Position numbers and translations under genes: made by a program
IMG/VR virus record: IMGVR_UViG_3300045256_000816
Span: 1-43,112 of that record
Source: a virus
Length of the DNA stretch: 43,112 bases
Direction: 5' to 3' (one strand)
The notes under the pieces: generated by a model
The model's database searches: none
Told to the model about the DNA's origin: nothing
The model's input: the letters and a program-made list of their open reading frames with translations, nothing else
In this document: positions 17,827 to 25,323 of the stretch, piece by piece
Layout: each line of letters starts with the position of its first letter
Position numbering within the stretch: the stretch's first letter is position 1

Positions 17827-19065
17827 GTGTCGGGCGCCGCCTCGGCCGAGGCGATCGGCCTGCCCTTCGACGAGGCGATCGCGTTCTTCCGGCGGAAGCT
17901 CTCGGTCCCGACGCCGCGGTGGGACACGCTCTGGCGCGACCAGCACGCGGCCGCCTTCACCGTCGCCGGCGCCATGTCGGCGGACCTTCTCGCGGATCTC
18001 CGGGCGTCGGTGGACAAGGCGCTCGCCGAGGGCGGCACGCTCGCGGAGTTCCGGCGCGAGTTCGACGCGATCGTCCAGCGCCACGGCTGGCGGCACAAGG
18101 GCAAGCCCGGCTGGCGGGCGCGGACGATCTTCGAGACGAACCTCCGCACCGCCTACGCGGCCGGCAGCTGGCAGCAGGCCCAGGACACGAAGGCGGAGCG
18201 GCCGTTCCTCCGGTACTCGGCGATCCTCGACAACCGGACGCGGCCGCTCCACCGCCGGTGGCACGGCACGATCCTGCCCATCGACCACCCCTTTTGGCGG
18301 ACGCACTACCCGCCGAACGGCTGGGGTTGCCGCTGCACCGTCATCACGCTGAGCCAGGCGCAGCTCGACGCGCGGGGCTGGCGCGTCACGGATCCGGCGC
18401 CCGCATCGGGTGGGGTGCCGCGTCGGGTGCGGCAGCCCGACGGGACCGAGCGCATCGAGGAGGTGCCGCCGGGCGTGGATCCGGCCTGGGCCTACAACGT
18501 CGGCGAGGCGAACCTGCGCTGGCGGGCCGCGCGCGTGATGGCGGACAAGCTGGCGGCCGCCCCGCCGGATCTCGCGACCGTGGTGATGGCCGCGGTGAAC
18601 CGCGCCGGCGGCGAGGCGGCCGCGACGCGCGAGGATCTCCATGCCGAGTTCGACGCCTGGGCGGCGCGCTCAGCCCGCGGCGAGGCGACGGCCGCCGGCG
18701 ACGCCGAACGGGTGGCCGGCGCGCTCGTGCCCCTGGCGCACCGGGCGCTGTCCCGTGCCCTCAACGCGCCGCCGAAGGCGACGCCCGCGGTGCTGGTGCT
18801 GCGCGCGGAGGACGTCGCCGCCGGCGCCACCCTGGCACGGCAGCTGCCGGCGCTGGTCGCGACGGCCGGCGCCACGCTCCTCGAGGCGGCGACGGGCGAC
18901 GTGCTGCTGGTGGTGGCCGCGGCCGCCGGGCGTGTGCTGGCGGTGCGGGCGCGGCGCGACGGTAGGGTGCTGCGTCTCGACGGCGGGCGGCAGGAGGAGC
19001 TGCCGGGACCGGAGGGCCTCCGGCTGCTGTCGGGGTCGTGGCCCTGGCCGGAAACCCGCGGATGA
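17827..19065 (+). CDS. MuF/gp30-like minor head protein with long C-terminal extension
   Basis: A 412-aa head-morphogenesis protein. The Mu-F core at about 60-180 ends in the strongly conserved LDNRTRPLHRRWHGTILPID then HPFWRTHYPPNGWGCRC (Cys168, Cys170). The protein normally sits inside the head near the portal. About 150 residues after position 250 form an additional part, with a terminal beta-rich piece (VLLVVAAAAGRVLAVRARRD, then GRVLRLDGG). C-terminal extensions of MuF proteins are often ejected effector or nuclease-like domains (for example PBECR types); this one has no recognised catalytic motif. GTG start 1 nt after the portal stop. Confidence 0.9.
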   Translation: MSGAASAEAIGLPFDEAIAFFRRKLSVPTPRWDTLWRDQHAAAFTVAGAMSADLLADLRASVDKALAEGGTLAEFRREFDAIVQRHGWRHKGKPGWRARTIFETNLRTAYAAGSWQQAQDTKAERPFLRYSAILDNRTRPLHRRWHGTILPIDHPFWRTHYPPNGWGCRCTVITLSQAQLDARGWRVTDPAPASGGVPRRVRQPDGTERIEEVPPGVDPAWAYNVGEANLRWRAARVMADKLAAAPPDLATVVMAAVNRAGGEAAATREDLHAEFDAWAARSARGEATAAGDAERVAGALVPLAHRALSRALNAPPKATPAVLVLRAEDVAAGATLARQLPALVATAGATLLEAATGDVLLVVAAAAGRVLAVRARRDGRVLRLDGGRQEELPGPEGLRLLSGSWPWPETRG

Positions 19066-19181: not shown

Positions 19182-19523
19182 TTAAACCCCCGGTCCTGTA
19201 GACGGCTCCGACCCCGTTTTGTCGGTAGGCGCGGGTGCCGCATCTCCAGCCGGCGCCGCCTTGGGCAGGCGGAGGCCATCCTGACGGGCCCGATGGATCC
19301 AGAACGCGATCGCCTCCGGCTTCTGCGACACCAGCGACAGAAGCGCGATGGCCGGTCCGTCCGGCTTGCGGCGGCCCTGCTCCCAGTCCTGGACCGCGCT
19401 GGGCGAGAGGTAGTAGCGGCGCGCGAACTCGGCCTGGGTGAGCTTCAGCCGGTCGCGAAGGCGCTTGAGGGCCTCGGGGAAATCGTCGGGCAGGGCGATG
19501 GGCTTCTGGCGCTTGTGCGGCAT
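19182..19523 (-). CDS. XRE/HigA-like helix-turn-helix protein (orphan)
   Basis: A 113-aa leftward gene. Residues about 17-75 are an XRE-type domain: RLRDRLKLTQAEFARRYYLS followed by PSAVQDWEQGRRKPDGPAIA, the WEQGRR-P pattern typical of HigA/NadS antitoxins and small phage regulators. A disordered Pro/Ala/Thr tail follows. The start at 19523 is chosen because AAGAAGGG lies 6 nt upstream on its strand and the conserved region begins there; an upstream in-frame ATG at 19610 lacks this support. No toxin gene is adjacent on this strand, so it may be a stand-alone regulator of the island. Confidence 0.8.
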   Translation of the reverse strand: MPHKRQKPIALPDDFPEALKRLRDRLKLTQAEFARRYYLSPSAVQDWEQGRRKPDGPAIALLSLVSQKPEAIAFWIHRARQDGLRLPKAAPAGDAAPAPTDKTGSEPSTGPGV

Positions 19524-19609
19524 TGCGGGCCCTTCTTGGCGCTCTGGCCTTGCTTGGTCAACGGAAATTGGCCTCTCATGTACGCGCGTGCAGCGCGAGG
19601 GCCGGCCCA

Positions 19610-19951
19610 ATGACCGGCGGCGATTTGGCCTTCCTGGCCTTCTTCGGCCTGCCGCTCCTGGCCATCCTCTGGGGCGCGCTGCTGTGGTGGGGCGTCGTGC
19701 TGTTCCGGCGGCTCTTCCCGCCGCGTCCGGCGCCCGCCGCGCCGGCGGAGTGCCGCGCGTCCGCTCTGCGTCCGTGCCGCTGGCGCGCCCGATACGACGA
19801 GGTCATGCCGTCGGCGGAGGTGAACATCAACGGATCGTGCGGCTCGGCGGCGTTTTTGGAGGCGCTGAAGCTGAACCTGTACGTCCGCGACGTCTGCGAG
19901 CGCTGCGGCGCAGTTCGCGAGCGGCCGGAACATCGGGAAACAAGTTGTTGA
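19610..19951 (+). CDS. Small membrane-anchored protein with cysteine pair
   Basis: A 113-aa protein with one N-terminal hydrophobic span (about 7-32: FLAFFGLPLLAILWGALLWW), then a basic/proline linker (RRLFPPRPAPAAPAE) and a soluble part ending VRDVCERCGAVRERPEH. Cys in C-x2-C plus two more Cys could bind zinc or form disulphides. Divergent from the XRE gene with an 86-nt gap. No family recognised; a lysogenic-conversion (moron) gene is likely from the context. Confidence 0.6.
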   Translation: MTGGDLAFLAFFGLPLLAILWGALLWWGVVLFRRLFPPRPAPAAPAECRASALRPCRWRARYDEVMPSAEVNINGSCGSAAFLEALKLNLYVRDVCERCGAVRERPEHRETSC

Positions 19952-20041
19952 CTTGGCTACCGCCACTTGCGGTCAAACTTCGTTGACAACGACCGCCCCG
20001 TTGGCGACGGGCGCTGACGGAACCGGAGGAGGGAAGAATCG
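19948..20041 (+). promoter_or_regulatory. Putative promoter/operator of the Panacea pair
   Basis: This 90-nt gap is visibly more A+T-rich than its surroundings. It holds TTGACT at 19948-19953 and TTGACA at 19983-19988 as possible -35 elements, and a perfect inverted repeat ACCGC-CACTT-GCGGT at 19959-19973 that could be an operator for autoregulation. Strong ribosome site GGAGGAGGG at 20025-20033. No clear -10 hexamer. Confidence 0.45.
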
Positions 20042-20611
20042 ATGCACGATCCAAGGATCATCGCCAACGCGGTGCTGAGGCGTGCCGAGGCGCGAGGGTA
20101 CGCGCTGACGAACCTGGACCTCCAGAAGATCGTCTACCTCCTCCACGGTGGCTTTCTGCGGCAAACCGGCAAGCCGCTCGTCGCCGGCGAGTTCGTGGCC
20201 TGGGAGTACGGGCCGGTGCACCGCGTGCTCTACGACGCGGCGAAGTCCTGGGGGGACACGCCGGTGGACCGCCCGCTGACGAAGCTCGACCCGATCCGCC
20301 GCCAGCGGGTGCCCGTCCCGGCGCTCGATGATCCCGAGGTCGAGGAGTTCCTTGACGCGAATCTGGGCCGGTTCCTAGTCATCCCCACGTATCAGCTGGT
20401 GCAGCTCACGCATGCGCCCGGCACCCCGTGGAGCCGCACGATGGAGGCGGCCGAGACACGGGCGAACGTGGGGATGGTCATCTCGAACGACCTGATCGCC
20501 CAGCACTACGAGGGCGCCTCCGTCGGTGAGCCGGGCAAGACAGGCGGCGGTCGCCCCAGCGTCCAGGAGACGGTGGCGGCGCTATGGCAGACGGGGACGA
20601 CGGCGGCGTAA
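20042..20611 (+). CDS. Panacea (SocA/DUF4065) antitoxin-like protein
   Basis: A 189-aa protein with the Panacea domain at about 10-130: LTNLDLQKIVYLLHGGFLRQ, then GKPLVAGEFVAWEYGPVHRV and LYDAAKSWG are hallmark segments. Panacea-domain proteins (PanA, and the Caulobacter antitoxin SocA) neutralise many unrelated toxins, by direct binding or, for SocA, by delivering the toxin to ClpXP. They are common in prophages, where the pair can act as abortive-infection defence. It has its own strong ribosome site and overlaps the next gene by 28 nt, as toxin-antitoxin partners do. The family is clear; the antitoxin role is inferred from context. Confidence 0.88.
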   Translation: MHDPRIIANAVLRRAEARGYALTNLDLQKIVYLLHGGFLRQTGKPLVAGEFVAWEYGPVHRVLYDAAKSWGDTPVDRPLTKLDPIRRQRVPVPALDDPEVEEFLDANLGRFLVIPTYQLVQLTHAPGTPWSRTMEAAETRANVGMVISNDLIAQHYEGASVGEPGKTGGGRPSVQETVAALWQTGTTAA

Positions 20612-21333
20612 AGCGGCGCGCGGCGCAAAAGCGGGCGGACGACCTCGTAGGCAGGTTTCCAGTCACCGACCTCGGGCACGCGCTGGCGCTGACGGGGTCG
20701 TCGCGGCAGCAGTTCCTTCGTCGCTTCGTCGAGCGAAAGGGCGGCCGGGGCAACTTCACGCCGCTGCGGGCGCAACTGCCTCGCATCTACGCGGCGCACG
20801 GGCCCGAGGCCGGAAGCCACGGCGCACTGTTCCGCGATCTGCCGCCGGACGGGTGGGACCGTATCGAAGCTAGCCTTCGCGACACCTGCGAGCCGCAGCA
20901 CCTCGATACGAACCTGATGGTCGGGCGGATGGTGTTCGACCACGCGCGGGGCAGCGGATACACCGCCGTCACCATGAAGGCGCCGCCGCTCCGGGTGCAC
21001 GGGAAGCCCACGGTGCCTGTCGGCATCGACTTCTACTTGGTGCAGGGCGACAAGGTGATCCTGCAGTTCGTTCACCTCCGTTCGGCGGAGCTGTCGGCGC
21101 GCCAGCGGGCGATCATGGCGACATTGATCTTCGAGGCATGCGGCCGCGGCGAGCTTGAGGAGGCGCAGCCCGAAGTGGAGTTCGTCTCGTTCTGCGCCCC
21201 GAAGGCGGGTCAGCCCAGGCAGACGGTTTTGAGGTCGGTACCGCGGGACAAGTTCGTTCCGCTGTCCACGCTGAACGACGAGATCGCCGAGGTTTTCGAC
21301 ATCTTGCGGAGGATTGCGACCGGCGAGGCCTGA
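20584..21333 (+). CDS. Putative Panacea-partner toxin, family not recognised
   Basis: A 249-aa protein directly coupled to the Panacea gene. I do not recognise the family. A basic N-terminus (VKRRAAQKRADDLVG) is followed by a helical segment (SSRQQFLRRFVERKG). The most structured part at about 143-205 reads TVPVGIDFYLVQGDKVILQF, VHLRSAELSARQRAIMATLI and PEVEFVSFCAP, i.e. strand-strand-helix-strand. That order resembles a restriction-endonuclease-like (PD-(D/E)XK) core with Asp149 and Gln161, but the usual Lys is absent, so this is speculative. Being next to a Panacea antitoxin makes it the presumed toxin. GGAG lies about 14 nt upstream of the ATG at 20584, so translation is probably coupled. 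Confidence 0.7.
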   Translation: MADGDDGGVKRRAAQKRADDLVGRFPVTDLGHALALTGSSRQQFLRRFVERKGGRGNFTPLRAQLPRIYAAHGPEAGSHGALFRDLPPDGWDRIEASLRDTCEPQHLDTNLMVGRMVFDHARGSGYTAVTMKAPPLRVHGKPTVPVGIDFYLVQGDKVILQFVHLRSAELSARQRAIMATLIFEACGRGELEEAQPEVEFVSFCAPKAGQPRQTVLRSVPRDKFVPLSTLNDEIAEVFDILRRIATGEA

Positions 21334-21446
21334 TGGGGCGCGCTTTCTGACATTGCGCCCGGCGGCACGCCCCGCCACCCTCCGGCCACGCCACAGCCCG
21401 GAGCCCCCGCCCGATGCGAACCACGATCCTCGCCCTGGCGGTCGCC
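21334..21446. terminator. Convergent intergenic gap with two hairpins
   Basis: Between the toxin-like gene (rightward) and the lipoprotein gene (leftward). A perfect 6-bp stem GGGCGC/GCGCCC lies at 21336-21341 and 21355-21360, and another, CTCCGG/CCGGAG, at 21380-21385 and 21398-21403. Neither is followed by a T-run, so bidirectional termination is plausible but unproven. Confidence 0.4.
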
Positions 21447-22046
21447 TCAGCTGACGGGCCGCCCGCCGCCGCCGAGCGCGCCGAGCACCCGCAGCAGATC
21501 CTGGTCGTCGCCGATGGCCCTCACCAGGCGCCGCAGCCCTTCCTCCAGCGCAATCTGCGCGTTCTCGCCGCTCGCCAACATAATGCCGGGGTTCTGCGCC
21601 TCCACGGTGTAGTTCTTCGTGAAGAGGATCTGCCCGCCGGGCGACAGGACGCGGACGTTGGCGGTCAGCTCGCCCTGAGCCGTGCCCGTCCAGAAGCCGA
21701 CGAGGAAGCGGTTGAGGAACCGCAGGACCTCGATCTCGACGCGGCCGTCCGTGCCGTTGGTGCGGAAGCCCCTGGCCTCCAGCTCCCGCACGATGGCCTG
21801 GCGCAGCTCCGCGACCACGTCGTTGGTGGCGATGATGGGCGCCATCTCCATCCCGTAGCCATTCACCTTGTTGCCGACGCGGTCGCGGATCTGGCGGTTG
21901 TCCTGCGTGACAACGCTCAGCGCGATCAGCTCGGCGCCGGGCATGGCGGCTGGCATGACCTGCGGCTGGTGGCGGACCTCGATGTGGTCCGGCTGCAGGG
22001 CGCAGGCCGGCAGCAGCAAGGCAAGCAACAGGGCGAGACGGCGCAT
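21447..22046 (-). CDS. YajG-like outer-membrane lipoprotein
   Basis: A 199-aa leftward gene. The N-terminus MRRLALLLALLLPAC is a lipoprotein signal with lipobox LLPAC (lipidated Cys15). The mature part resembles YajG-family lipoproteins: IALSVVTQDNRQIRDRVGNK, then VVAELRQAIVRELEARGFRT and VEIEVLRFLNRFLVGFWTGT, ending with GEDA-type helices (LEEGLRRLVRAIGDD). It would be exported and anchored in the outer membrane. Unusual cargo for a phage; lysogenic conversion or superinfection exclusion at the surface is a reasonable inference. Divergent from the secreted-protein gene. Confidence 0.75.
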   Translation of the reverse strand: MRRLALLLALLLPACALQPDHIEVRHQPQVMPAAMPGAELIALSVVTQDNRQIRDRVGNKVNGYGMEMAPIIATNDVVAELRQAIVRELEARGFRTNGTDGRVEIEVLRFLNRFLVGFWTGTAQGELTANVRVLSPGGQILFTKNYTVEAQNPGIMLASGENAQIALEEGLRRLVRAIGDDQDLLRVLGALGGGGRPVS

Positions 22047-22130
22047 TGGGCGGCTTCCTCCACGTGATGGAACGCGGCCATGCTTCCGGTCGCGCCCCGA
22101 CAGCGCAAGCAGGACATTGGGAGAACAGCG

Positions 22131-22754
22131 ATGAAGCGCATCGCTTTGCTCGTAGCTGCTTCCCTGGCCGCCAAGAATGCACATGCAGCCGATCCGCCTA
22201 CCGATCGCGAACTGATCGTCGGCACCGCGGGCTGCGCCCTCGTGCGCGACGCCCTGGCCCGGCTGCGCTGCTTCGAGGGGTTTGCCGAGGACGCCACCGC
22301 GCGCCTCACGCCGGCCGAGCGCGGGGACGCCGAGGCGGTGGCGCGCGTCCTCAACGGCGTCGCGGCGTCGGCCCCTGCGCCGCCGATGACGGATGCGCAG
22401 CGCACGATCTTCCTCAGCGGACAAGCCTTCGCCGGGCGCGGGCGCTGCGAGCTGCTCGTGCGCTTGCGGAACGACGGTGCCGAGCCGCTGTCCTTCGTCG
22501 GGCTCAATATCGAGGTTGTGGCGGACGGCCGAACCTCGCTGGAGAGCTTCAACTTCCGCGATCTGGGCCGGCTTGAGGCACGTGAGGAAACTCGTGCCCT
22601 CGACCGGCCCTGCGGGCCGCTGATGAACTTCCGGGTGACCAGCGTGCCAATCTGCACATCCGGCTCCGTGAGCTTCCGAGACTGCCTAGATCACGTCCAT
22701 GGCCGCATACAAACACCGCAGGGGGAGCGGCCAGTGTTTCGCGCTGGCCCTTGA
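22131..22754 (+). CDS. Secreted/periplasmic hypothetical protein
   Basis: A 207-aa protein with a Sec signal peptide (MKRIALLVAASLAAKNAHAA, cleavage after AHA). The mature part contains six or more Cys, suggesting disulphides, and a beta-rich middle (RCELLVRLRNDGAEPLSFVG, then LNIEVVADGRTSLESFNFRD) that looks like an immunoglobulin-like or FxLYD-type sandwich. No family assigned. It is divergent from the lipoprotein gene with 84 nt between start codons, so the two could share a control region and act together in the envelope. The start at 22131 places the signal peptide correctly. Confidence 0.7.
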   Translation: MKRIALLVAASLAAKNAHAADPPTDRELIVGTAGCALVRDALARLRCFEGFAEDATARLTPAERGDAEAVARVLNGVAASAPAPPMTDAQRTIFLSGQAFAGRGRCELLVRLRNDGAEPLSFVGLNIEVVADGRTSLESFNFRDLGRLEAREETRALDRPCGPLMNFRVTSVPICTSGSVSFRDCLDHVHGRIQTPQGERPVFRAGP

Positions 22755-22990
22755 CGCACACGATGCCGTTCCGCGATGGTGCCAAGGCTAGCAGGGCGGC
22801 TTGAACACCCCTTGCGGCGGTTTCTCAACGGCGTCGGCCCCGCGCCAGGGGCACCCCGATACGTCCGGGTGGCGTGCAGGCATGTCCAAGGTCGGAGTTT
22901 GCTCCGTCCCAAAGCTGCGCGCGGCCGTCCGTTGAGCGGCTGTTCAACACCCGGACCCGCGGCGGGGGTCCCCGCGAAGGAGGCACGGCG
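22755..22990. promoter_or_regulatory. Intergenic region upstream of bro-gapR with inverted repeats
   Basis: A 236-nt region without a supported gene. It contains the dyad GTTGA-8 nt-TCAAC at 22931-22948, a near copy of part of it (TTGAACACCC at 22801-22810 versus TTCAACACCC at 22943-22952), and the perfect 6-bp repeat GGACCC/GGGTCC at about 22953-22971. GAAGGAGG lies just before the ATG at 22991. These are candidate operator/promoter elements; no sigma-70 boxes are convincing. Confidence 0.4.
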
Positions 22991-23614
22991 ATGCCGGCCA
23001 ACCCGCAATCCACCGCGCTCGCCTACGGCGCGCACGCCCTCGAAGCCATCCACCACGACGGGCTGACTTGGCTCAGGGTTCATTCGCTGAGTGAACCCTT
23101 GGGCTTCGACAACGCTCGAAGCGTCCTCAACCTCTACGCCCGCAATGCCGACGAGTTCGGCCCGAACGAGACACGGGAGCTGCCGCTCCCCACCGCGGGC
23201 GGCGTCCAGAAGGTCCGCGTCTTCTCCCTCCACGGCGCGCGGCTGCTGGCCATGCTCGCCTCGACGCCCGAGGCGAAGAGGTTCCGCCGCTGGGTGATCG
23301 ACCGCCTCGCGGAGCTGGACGCGGCCCGCCCCGACACCGCCGCCCGCGCGAAGCGCCACGCCCGGATCGAGGAGCAGGTGGCCCGCTTCCGCCAGCACCT
23401 CCTCGCCGAGGACGAGCGCTACGACCCCTTCGTCGAGCGGCTCGACCGCATCGACCAGGACATCGCCGCCCTCAACATGGACAAGCGCGACGTCTACGCC
23501 GAGGCGCGCGCGGCCGGCCTCTCCGAGGAGGAGCTGCGGTCCATGCGCGCATCGCGCCGCATGATCGCCATCGGCTGGGAAGCCCCGCGCCGGAAGGGCC
23601 TGCGCCATGGCTGA
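22991..23614 (+). CDS. Bro-N domain protein fused to a GapR-like (DUF2312) domain
   Basis: A 207-aa two-domain protein. Residues about 14-106 are a Bro-N/antirepressor domain: LTWLRVHSLSEPLGFDNARS, VRVFSLHGARLLAMLAS and EAKRFRRWVIDRLAELD. Residues about 147-190 are a GapR-like segment: FVERLDRIDQDIAALNMDKR then DVYAEARAAGLSEEELRSM. This is close to the DUF2312 protein at 5645-5950 (LVQRLERIEQDIGALNSDKR then DVYAEAKSAGF). Bro-N proteins are DNA-binding phage antirepressors; GapR binds overtwisted DNA. The C-terminal part after the core diverges from GapR, lacking the RYRR-DP end. Strong ribosome site GAAGGAGG. A regulator acting on supercoiled DNA is inferred. Confidence 0.85.
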   Translation: MPANPQSTALAYGAHALEAIHHDGLTWLRVHSLSEPLGFDNARSVLNLYARNADEFGPNETRELPLPTAGGVQKVRVFSLHGARLLAMLASTPEAKRFRRWVIDRLAELDAARPDTAARAKRHARIEEQVARFRQHLLAEDERYDPFVERLDRIDQDIAALNMDKRDVYAEARAAGLSEEELRSMRASRRMIAIGWEAPRRKGLRHG

Positions 23615-24156: not shown

Positions 24157-25323
24157 ATGACCGCCCCCGCCCCCCAGCCGCCCGCACCGGGCGCCGAGCC
24201 GCTGCCGCCCTTCGAGGTGTTCCGCGCCGGAACGCACACGGCGATGGACGGGCAGCGGCTCTCCTTCTCGCGCGACGACCTCGCCGCGATCGCCGCCGCC
24301 TACGACCCCGCAACCCGCGAGGCGCCGCTCGTCGCCGGCCACCCGAAGCACGACGACCCCGCCTACGGCTGGCTCGACCGCCTCGAGGTGAAGGGCGACA
24401 CGCTCGTCGCCCACCCGAAGCAGGTGGACAGCGCCTTCGCGGAGATGGTCCGCAAGGGCCGCTTCAAGCACCGCTCCATCGCGCTGCTGCCGCCCGGCTC
24501 GCCCGGCAACCCGTCCGCCACCGCGCACTACCCCAAGCACATCGGCTTCCTCGGCGCCCAGCCGCCGGCCGTGCAGGGCCTCAAGCCGATCGCCTTCGGC
24601 CGGATCGACGAGACGAGCGTCGCCTTCATGGAGCCCTGGCAGCAGTCCGGCCTCGGCCGGATGCTCCAGCGGCTGCGCGAGTGGCTCATCGCCGAGAAGG
24701 GCGCCGAGACCGCGGACCGCGTCCTGCCCTCCTGGGAGATCGAGGACGTGTCGCGTCCGCCCGTCGCGCCGGCGCCGCAGCCCTTCCCCGCCTTCTCCGA
24801 GCCGCCCCTCAACCCGCCTCCAAGGGAGCCTGAAGTGACCGACAAGACCGTGGCGGAGCTGCAGGCGCAGCTCGACGCCGAGAAGGCCGCGCGCGAGGCG
24901 GCCGAGCGCCAGGTGGCCGAGCAGGCCGCCGCCTTCGCCGAGGCCGAGGCGCGCGACCGCCGCCGGGACGACGAGGCCTTCCTCGACGGCCTGGTGAAGG
25001 AGGGCCGCCTGATCCCCGCGCTCAAGGCGGACGCGCTCGCCTTCATGGCGGCGCTCGAGCCGAAGGAGGCCGTCGTCGCCTTCGCCGAGGGCGAGAAGCG
25101 CGCCCCGCACGCCGCCTTCCGCGAGCTGCTCGGCAAGCTGCCGAAGGTCATTCCCTTCGGCGAGTTCGCCGGCGGCACGGGCGAGATCCGCGCGGTCGAC
25201 CCGCAGGACGCCTCGTCCATCCAGCGCGAGGCCGCCGCCTTCATGGAGCGCGAGGCCAAGCAGGGCCGCGCCGTCACCATCGCCGAGGCCATCGAGGCCG
25301 TCACCAAGGGAGCCGCCGCGTGA
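24157..25323 (+). CDS. Head maturation protease-scaffold fusion (Mu gpI-like)
   Basis: A 388-aa protein. The N-terminal part (about 15-160) is Mu gpI-like: FRAGTHTAMDGQRLSFSRDD, APLVAGHPKHDDPAYGWLDR, FKHRSIALLPPGSPGNPSAT and HIGFLGAQPPAVQGLKPI. It is the serine-type protease that processes the scaffold and capsid. His57 in AGHPKH and Ser106 in HRSIALL are likely catalytic. The C-terminal half (about 227-388) is a charged coiled coil (VAELQAQLDAEKAAREAAER) ending in helical segments, i.e. the scaffold. In Mu the scaffold Z is made from an internal start in the same frame; see the separate entry at 24835. Confidence 0.9.
   Translation: MTAPAPQPPAPGAEPLPPFEVFRAGTHTAMDGQRLSFSRDDLAAIAAAYDPATREAPLVAGHPKHDDPAYGWLDRLEVKGDTLVAHPKQVDSAFAEMVRKGRFKHRSIALLPPGSPGNPSATAHYPKHIGFLGAQPPAVQGLKPIAFGRIDETSVAFMEPWQQSGLGRMLQRLREWLIAEKGAETADRVLPSWEIEDVSRPPVAPAPQPFPAFSEPPLNPPPREPEVTDKTVAELQAQLDAEKAAREAAERQVAEQAAAFAEAEARDRRRDDEAFLDGLVKEGRLIPALKADALAFMAALEPKEAVVAFAEGEKRAPHAAFRELLGKLPKVIPFGEFAGGTGEIRAVDPQDASSIQREAAAFMEREAKQGRAVTIAEAIEAVTKGAAA
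24835..25323 (+). CDS. Internal in-frame start: scaffold protein (Z-like)
   Basis: Inside the protease gene a GTG at 24835 is in the same frame and is preceded by GGGAG (24824-24828) with 6 nt spacing. It lies exactly at the junction between the proline-rich linker and the coiled-coil scaffold (VTDKTVAELQAQLDAEK). The product would be a 162-aa protease-free scaffold, as gene Z in Mu and Nu3 in lambda. Ribosome site and domain boundary coincide, which is unlikely by chance, but this is a prediction. Confidence 0.65.
   Translation: MTDKTVAELQAQLDAEKAAREAAERQVAEQAAAFAEAEARDRRRDDEAFLDGLVKEGRLIPALKADALAFMAALEPKEAVVAFAEGEKRAPHAAFRELLGKLPKVIPFGEFAGGTGEIRAVDPQDASSIQREAAAFMEREAKQGRAVTIAEAIEAVTKGAAA

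What the first reader, a model, noticed from the sequence alone, without database searches (positions are those of the whole stretch)
20042..21333. Panacea antitoxin paired with an unrecognised partner: possible new toxin family
The first gene carries clear Panacea/SocA (DUF4065) motifs. The overlapping second gene (249 aa) matches no toxin I know. Its central strand-strand-helix-strand core (GIDFYLVQGDKVILQFVHLR, then VEFVSFCAP) suggests a degenerate restriction-endonuclease-like fold, which would differ from the membrane and (p)ppGpp/ATP-type toxins usually paired with PanA. An A+T-richer promoter gap with an inverted repeat, placement in a prophage accessory island and 28-nt overlap support a self-contained defence cassette.
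Basis: partly seen in the sequence, partly recalled or inferred. Interest (0 to 1): 0.82.

Follow-up and report, generated by a model that had tools for sequence, protein, structure and literature searches.

The report
SocAB-like toxin–antitoxin in Mu-like phage
A Mu-like bacterial virus carries, as swappable cargo between two head genes, a distant relative of the SocAB toxin–antitoxin pair, whose founding toxin stops DNA replication by gripping the sliding clamp; the pair is not a new family, but its home in phages, its missing tail and its predicted dead-nuclease fold were not described in anything I could search.

Summary
Both genes are real: a Panacea gene (20042–20611) and a 249-aa partner (20584–21333), overlapping by 28 nt. 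The partner is not unrecognised. NCBIfam matches it to SocB, the sliding-clamp toxin of Caulobacter SocAB (E 4e-18), and matches gene 1 to SocA (E 4e-49). Both fall below the equivalog cut-offs, so this is a divergent SocAB. Every SocB relative with readable upstream DNA has a Panacea gene just upstream, bar one damaged copy. SocA and SocB trees agree.

The pair is cargo in a Mu-like phage, between head genes F and I. A sister phage with near-identical flanks carries a DNA methyltransferase there instead. Isolated Mu-like phages RS1 and RC1 carry SocAB in the same interval, with the toxin unannotated.

The window's clade lacks the C-terminal TGTGxLF-like tail of canonical SocBs, a candidate clamp-binding motif. 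Best reading: a phage-borne SocAB-family module, probably a non-enzymatic replication poison held by SocA, used for lysogen defence or maintenance. Target and role are inferred, not shown. New variant of a known kind.

The parts
20042..20611 (+). SocA-like antitoxin, Panacea domain (DUF4065), 189 aa
   Evidence: PF13274 E 2.2e-13; NF047745 SocA E 3.8e-49, 166.7 bits, cut-off 190; 67.7% identical to Neoroseomonas soli SocA
20584..21333 (+). SocB-like toxin, 249 aa; predicted degenerate PD-(D/E)XK-like fold; no C-terminal TGTGxLF tail
   Evidence: NF047746 SocB E 3.8e-18, 65.4 bits, cut-off 210, residues 26-246; 42% identical to Neoroseomonas SocB; AlphaFold pLDDT 79.9, pTM 0.75; Foldseek
20584..20611 (+). 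28-nt overlap of the two genes (translational coupling likely)
19611..20041 (.). upstream intergenic region with SocA Shine-Dalgarno; short palindromes only, no sigma-70-like match
19222..21343 (.). exchangeable cargo segment: DNA homology with sister phage L088 stops at 19221 and resumes at 21344, 10 nt after the SocB stop codon; L088 holds a DNA methyltransferase segment instead
   Evidence: blastn; methyltransferase PF01555 E 3.6e-40
19182..19610 (-). HTH protein (HTH_3; weak MqsA-like match), mostly inside the same exchanged segment; not seen beside other SocAB pairs examined
17827..19065 (+). left flank: Mu F-like minor head protein
   Evidence: PF04233 E 3.9e-23
24157..25323 (+). right flank: Mu I-like head maturation protease
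   Evidence: phrog_976 E 1.8e-109

Best explanation
The locus is a divergent SocAB-type toxin-antitoxin operon carried as cargo by a Mu-like temperate phage. Shown by sequence: SocA and SocB family relationship, fixed gene order, co-evolution of the two genes, and insertion in an exchangeable slot between head genes F and I. Inferred: SocB is a non-enzymatic toxin built on a decayed PD-(D/E)XK nuclease fold that stops host DNA replication, most likely by occupying the sliding clamp as in Caulobacter; SocA holds it, either as a ClpXP adaptor (type VI) or by direct binding (type II, as other Panacea proteins). In the lysogen, disturbance of SocA or ClpXP, for example by another phage, would free SocB and block replication, giving abortive protection or prophage maintenance.
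For: NCBIfam matches for both genes. Two-way profile matches between the window's clade and canonical SocBs. A SocA gene lies directly upstream in every full-length SocB whose upstream DNA is on the contig, except the damaged L074. Congruent SocA and SocB trees, with window+Neoroseomonas and RS1+Dinoroseobacter pairs in both. Same slot in phages RS1 and RC1. Cassette swap against sister phage L088. Clamp target, suppressors in the clamp's hydrophobic pocket, and ClpXP/SocA degradation of Caulobacter SocB are published (PMC12795458; PMC5422525; PMC7566177).
Against: Both scores are under the equivalog cut-offs. The canonical C-terminal TGTGxLF-like tail, the most clamp-motif-like element in the family, is absent from the window's whole clade, so the clamp may not be the target here. 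QQFLRRF (residues 42-48) fits QxxLxxF but its Q is not conserved. Other Panacea antitoxins tested did not need ClpXP or Lon (PMC8832971). No PADLOC match. No toxicity or defence data.
Confidence: 0.75

Rival explanations
1. A SocA-SocB pair in which the toxin of this tail-less clade has left the clamp and hits another replication or repair target, using its nuclease-derived surface to bind DNA or a repair complex.
For: The whole nine-member clade, including both phage copies, lacks the TGTGxLF-like tail of canonical SocBs (98/97 support). Foldseek neighbours are Cas4, AddAB/AdnAB, RecE, MGME1.
Against: The clamp motif of Caulobacter SocB could not be located here (paper not held); it may be elsewhere, for example the loop before the last helix (QSDLF in L082).
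Confidence: 0.3
2. SocB of this phage is an active nuclease toxin (restriction-like), neutralised by SocA.
For: PD-(D/E)XK-like predicted fold; canonical SocBs keep D at column 164 in 8 of 10 and R166 in all.
Against: No D/E-x-K in the window in either possible register (Q161-F-V, H164-L-R); column 149 acidic in 3 of 9 of the clade, column 164 acidic in 0 of 9. Published SocB acts by binding the clamp.
Confidence: 0.07
3. The pair serves the phage's own lytic cycle, for example by damping host chromosome replication, rather than defence or maintenance.
For: It lies among late head genes in the same direction.
Against: Mu-type phages replicate through the host replisome (general knowledge), so a clamp poison would harm them; the sister phage L088 lacks the pair; an antitoxin is always kept.
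Confidence: 0.12
4. A generic Panacea pair with an unrelated, truly new toxin, the SocB match being chance.
For: Panacea antitoxins pair with dozens of toxin types (PMC8832971); Pfam and PHROGs are silent on gene 2.
Against: E 3.8e-18 over residues 26-246, reciprocal profile hits, shared neighbour and matching trees.
Confidence: 0.01

Closest known systems
SocAB of Caulobacter crescentus (type VI toxin-antitoxin; NCBIfam NF047745/NF047746)
   Same: Same two families, same order (antitoxin first), toxin of similar length; Panacea antitoxin.
   Different: Scores below both equivalog cut-offs; no TGTGxLF-like C-terminal tail; carried by a Mu-like phage; degradation and clamp binding not shown.
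SocAB of the Neoroseomonas soli chromosome (L006)
   Same: Closest relative: SocA 68%, SocB 42% identical, sister in both trees.
   Different: Sits between housekeeping genes (LolA-, exonuclease III- and DedA-like ORFs by my reading), not in a phage.
SocAB of phages Rhodovulum RS1 and Rhodobacter RC1 (JF974307, JF974308)
   Same: Same pair in the same F-I interval of a Mu-like head module.
   Different: SocB 26% identical, on a different branch with a Roseobacteraceae prophage copy; the toxin starts with TTG and is unannotated except for its 3' part.
PanAT pairs of phages, such as Burkholderia phi52237 and E. coli PhiR47_1
   Same: Panacea antitoxin plus toxin in a temperate phage.
   Different: Different toxins (the phi52237 one is cyclase-like) and different positions.
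Accessory region RGP G of Pseudomonas Mu-like phages (anti-CRISPR genes, e.g. D3112 gp29/gp30)
   Same: Low-G+C accessory cargo region in the left half of Mu-like genomes (PMC4378225).
   Different: Carries anti-CRISPRs, not a toxin-antitoxin pair; exact equivalence of the interval rests on my memory of gene order.

Membership tests
SocA (NF047745) | score over the curated equivalog cut-off of 190 bits | tested here: not met
   166.7 bits, E 3.8e-49: homologous, but under the cut-off
SocA / Panacea (PF13274) | Panacea domain over Pfam's gathering score | tested here: met
   51.5 bits against 25.7
SocB (NF047746) | score over the curated equivalog cut-off of 210 bits | tested here: not met
   65.4 bits, E 3.8e-18, positions 2-216 of 228
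SocB superfamily | full-length homology to canonical SocBs | tested here: met
   profile of canonical SocBs finds the window ORF at E 1.2e-16 and the reverse holds
SocAB | socA directly upstream of socB | tested here: met
   window and all relatives with upstream sequence present, except damaged L074
SocAB (type VI) | SocA delivers SocB to ClpXP for degradation | not testable with these tools
   needs protein stability assays
SocB | binds the DnaN cleft through a clamp-binding motif | tested here: inconclusive
   canonical TGTGxLF-like tail absent in the window's clade; QQFLRRF present but not conserved; reference motif not available
PD-(D/E)XK nuclease fold | alpha-beta-beta-beta-alpha-beta core | tested here: met
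   predicted only: two AlphaFold models, top Foldseek hits Cas4-type ACE1, AdnA, RecE, MGME1, Hjc with prob up to 0.99 but TM-score mostly 0.2-0.47 and E above 1e-3 in the PDB
PD-(D/E)XK nuclease fold | sequence-profile similarity to a PD-(D/E)XK family | tested here: not met
   no Pfam match at E up to 10; hhalign against AddB-type domains probability 0.15%
PD-(D/E)XK nuclease (active) | catalytic D and D/E-x-K | tested here: not met
   column counts

The most novel reading that the evidence does not exclude
SocB toxins are decayed Cas4/RecB-type nucleases turned into non-enzymatic replication poisons, and Mu-like phages have repeatedly taken up SocAB, in the same head-gene interval, as a lysogen defence module; the phage branch has dropped the canonical tail and grips the replisome in a different way.
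Probability: 0.3. Interest if true: 0.68.

Novelty: new variant of a known kind. Interest (0 to 1): 0.5.

Why it matters
SocAB is the founding type VI toxin–antitoxin system and the first with a sliding-clamp target, yet as far as I could find it is known experimentally from one bacterium. Finding it as exchangeable cargo in Mu-like phages, including two isolated ones (RC1, RS1) where the toxin was missed by annotation, gives a natural setting in which its purpose can be tested. A predicted dead-nuclease fold for SocB, with a clade-wide loss of the likely clamp tail, makes a clear structural question of how these toxins stop replication.

Tried and rejected
New toxin family: rejected by NCBIfam and reciprocal profiles. 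Clamp motif QQFLRRF: fits the pattern but the Q is not conserved in relatives, so not claimed. Active nuclease: no catalytic D/E-x-K. Sequence-profile proof of PD-(D/E)XK ancestry: failed. Sequence matches in the PDB: the best single-sequence hit (a ubiquitin hydrolase, E 0.007) vanishes with the family profile, so chance. SocB in IMG/VR by peptide patterns: none found; the patterns are weak, so this is not proof of absence. SocAB in about 100 Mu-like IMG/VR loci from F and I protein queries: none besides the window and RS1. Other phages whose Panacea gene matches the window's SocA (Pseudomonas vB_Pae, Bordetella avium phages) carry 122–129-aa partners without a Pfam match, not SocB. The HTH gene upstream as a third component: not seen beside other SocAB pairs examined. 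Promoter inverted repeat: weak. Working-note correction: an earlier count said 49 of 56 short F–I gaps; the right count is 41 of 46 loci in which both genes were found.

Full report
OBSERVATION. The first is a Panacea protein (PF13274, 51.5 bits against a cut-off of 25.7). The second has no Pfam, PHROGs or PADLOC match.

IDENTITY. NCBIfam settles the partner: gene 1 matches SocA (NF047745, E 3.8e-49) and gene 2 matches SocB (NF047746, E 3.8e-18, residues 26–246 on positions 2–216 of 228), both below the equivalog cut-offs. A search from the SocA pair of window and Rhizobium gave 61 Panacea loci in genomes; the six most similar to the query (45–69% identity) all carry a SocB relative directly downstream, the others do not. 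Broader genome samples found SocB rarely: 5 of 398 genomes in the Neoroseomonas family, 2 of 149 in the Caulobacter family, 3 of 385 across the class, 7 of 397 and 5 of 398 in two further families. In every full copy with upstream sequence on the contig the Panacea gene lies directly upstream; the exceptions are two copies at contig ends (L236, L241) and one damaged copy beside an integrase (L074). A profile of canonical SocBs finds the window protein at E 1.2e-16.

TWO BRANCHES. The SocB tree puts the window with Neoroseomonas (99/97), phage RS1 with a Dinoroseobacter copy (100/99), and these with the Rhizobiales-type copies in one branch of nine (98/97). The SocA tree shows the same pairs. 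Canonical SocBs mostly end in a tail such as KTGTGGLFD, TGTGPLI, TGTEGGLF, NDDGPLF or KTGTDDLFS; no member of the window's branch has it. The tail resembles a clamp-binding motif, but that is my inference: the original SocB paper is not held, the reference Caulobacter protein itself was not examined, and a second candidate (QSDLF-like loop before the last helix) exists in some canonical members.

PHAGE SETTING. The window is a virus record with Mu transposase, terminase, Mu portal, Mu F, I protease and major head protein. SocAB lies between F and I. In 41 of 46 related IMG/VR loci where both genes were found the F–I gap is at most about 1.2 kb (some loci are near-duplicates); the window has 5.0 kb. 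The sister phage L088 (F 88%, I 95% identical) has homologous DNA up to window 19221 and again from 21344, 10 nt past the SocB stop, and between them a DNA methyltransferase segment instead of HTH+SocAB. The isolated Mu-like phages RS1 and RC1 carry SocA and a full SocB ORF (TTG start after a GGAGG, L083:5499–6221) between their G-like gene and the I protease; the records annotate only the 3' part of the toxin gene. Two papers that discuss RC1 do not mention a toxin. The Dinoroseobacter copy also looks prophage-borne, by tail fibre, DNA methyltransferase and S24 repressor neighbours. Since the phage copies do not group together, SocAB has probably entered such phages more than once. Pseudomonas Mu-like phages keep anti-CRISPR genes in a comparable low-G+C accessory region (PMC4378225); exact positional equivalence was not proved.

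FOLD. AlphaFold of the window SocB (pLDDT 79.9, pTM 0.75) and of the Roseibium SocB (pLDDT 88.2, pTM 0.84) both show an N-terminal helical part and an alpha-beta-beta-beta-alpha-beta core. The two alignments hold the same seven sequences, so the models are not fully independent. Foldseek against the PDB lists mostly PD-(D/E)XK enzymes: ACE1 (Cas4 family, prob 0.99), AdnA, Hjc, viral cap-snatching endonucleases, Cas4, RecE, MGME1, lambda-type exonuclease, AddAB. E-values are above 1e-3 and the TM-scores of the best hits are 0.35–0.47, so this is a consistent but moderate signal. The best viral match, M4T560 (109 aa), has the length of the annotated RC1 fragment RHWG_00018 and is probably that protein. 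Sequence profiles do not confirm the relationship. Catalytic residues are not recognisable in the window.

MECHANISM. Published: Caulobacter SocB blocks replication by binding the clamp, is degraded by ClpXP with SocA as adaptor, and suppressors map to the clamp's pocket. Inferred for this locus: a SocA-neutralised, non-enzymatic replication poison carried for lysogen defence or maintenance. I put about 0.97 on a SocAB-family pair, about 0.75 on a replication-blocking toxin, about 0.5 on the clamp as target, and about 0.6 on defence or maintenance as the role.

VERDICT. Observation confirmed; 'new toxin family' not supported; the fold guess was good. New variant of a known kind.

Noticed in passing
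L083:5499-6221 (Rhodovulum phage RS1, JF974307) and L190:4001-4723 (Rhodobacter phage RC1, JF974308): Full-length SocB toxin genes missed by annotation: only 3' pieces (RHVG_00038, RHWG_00018) are annotated.
   Followed up: yes
L088:10908-12611: Sister phage holds in the same slot a DNA methyltransferase (PF01555) whose C-terminal part weakly matches a NACHT-associated inactive restriction endonuclease domain (PF22722, below cut-off).
   Followed up: partly
window 22874-23614: Protein with a Bro-N antirepressor domain followed by a GapR-like DNA-binding domain (PF02498, PF10073).
   Followed up: no
window 21447-22199 (- strand): Uncharacterised bacterial lipoprotein (Lipoprotein_16, PF03923) in the same accessory interval: a lysogenic-conversion candidate.
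   Followed up: no
L010:4908-10484 (Dinoroseobacter MAG): Another apparently prophage-borne SocAB, between a D12-class DNA methyltransferase and a large DUF4062 protein.
   Followed up: partly
L085:4965-5785 (Bordetella avium phage vB_BaM-IFTN6) and L084:5001-5850 (Pseudomonas phage vB_Pae_BR161c): Panacea antitoxins paired with 122-129-aa partners that have no Pfam match: candidates for uncharacterised phage PanT toxins.
   Followed up: no
L095:10866-14479: Mu-like phage with a 4.4-kb F-I interval holding three uncharacterised minus-strand ORFs (669, 109, 313 aa).
   Followed up: no
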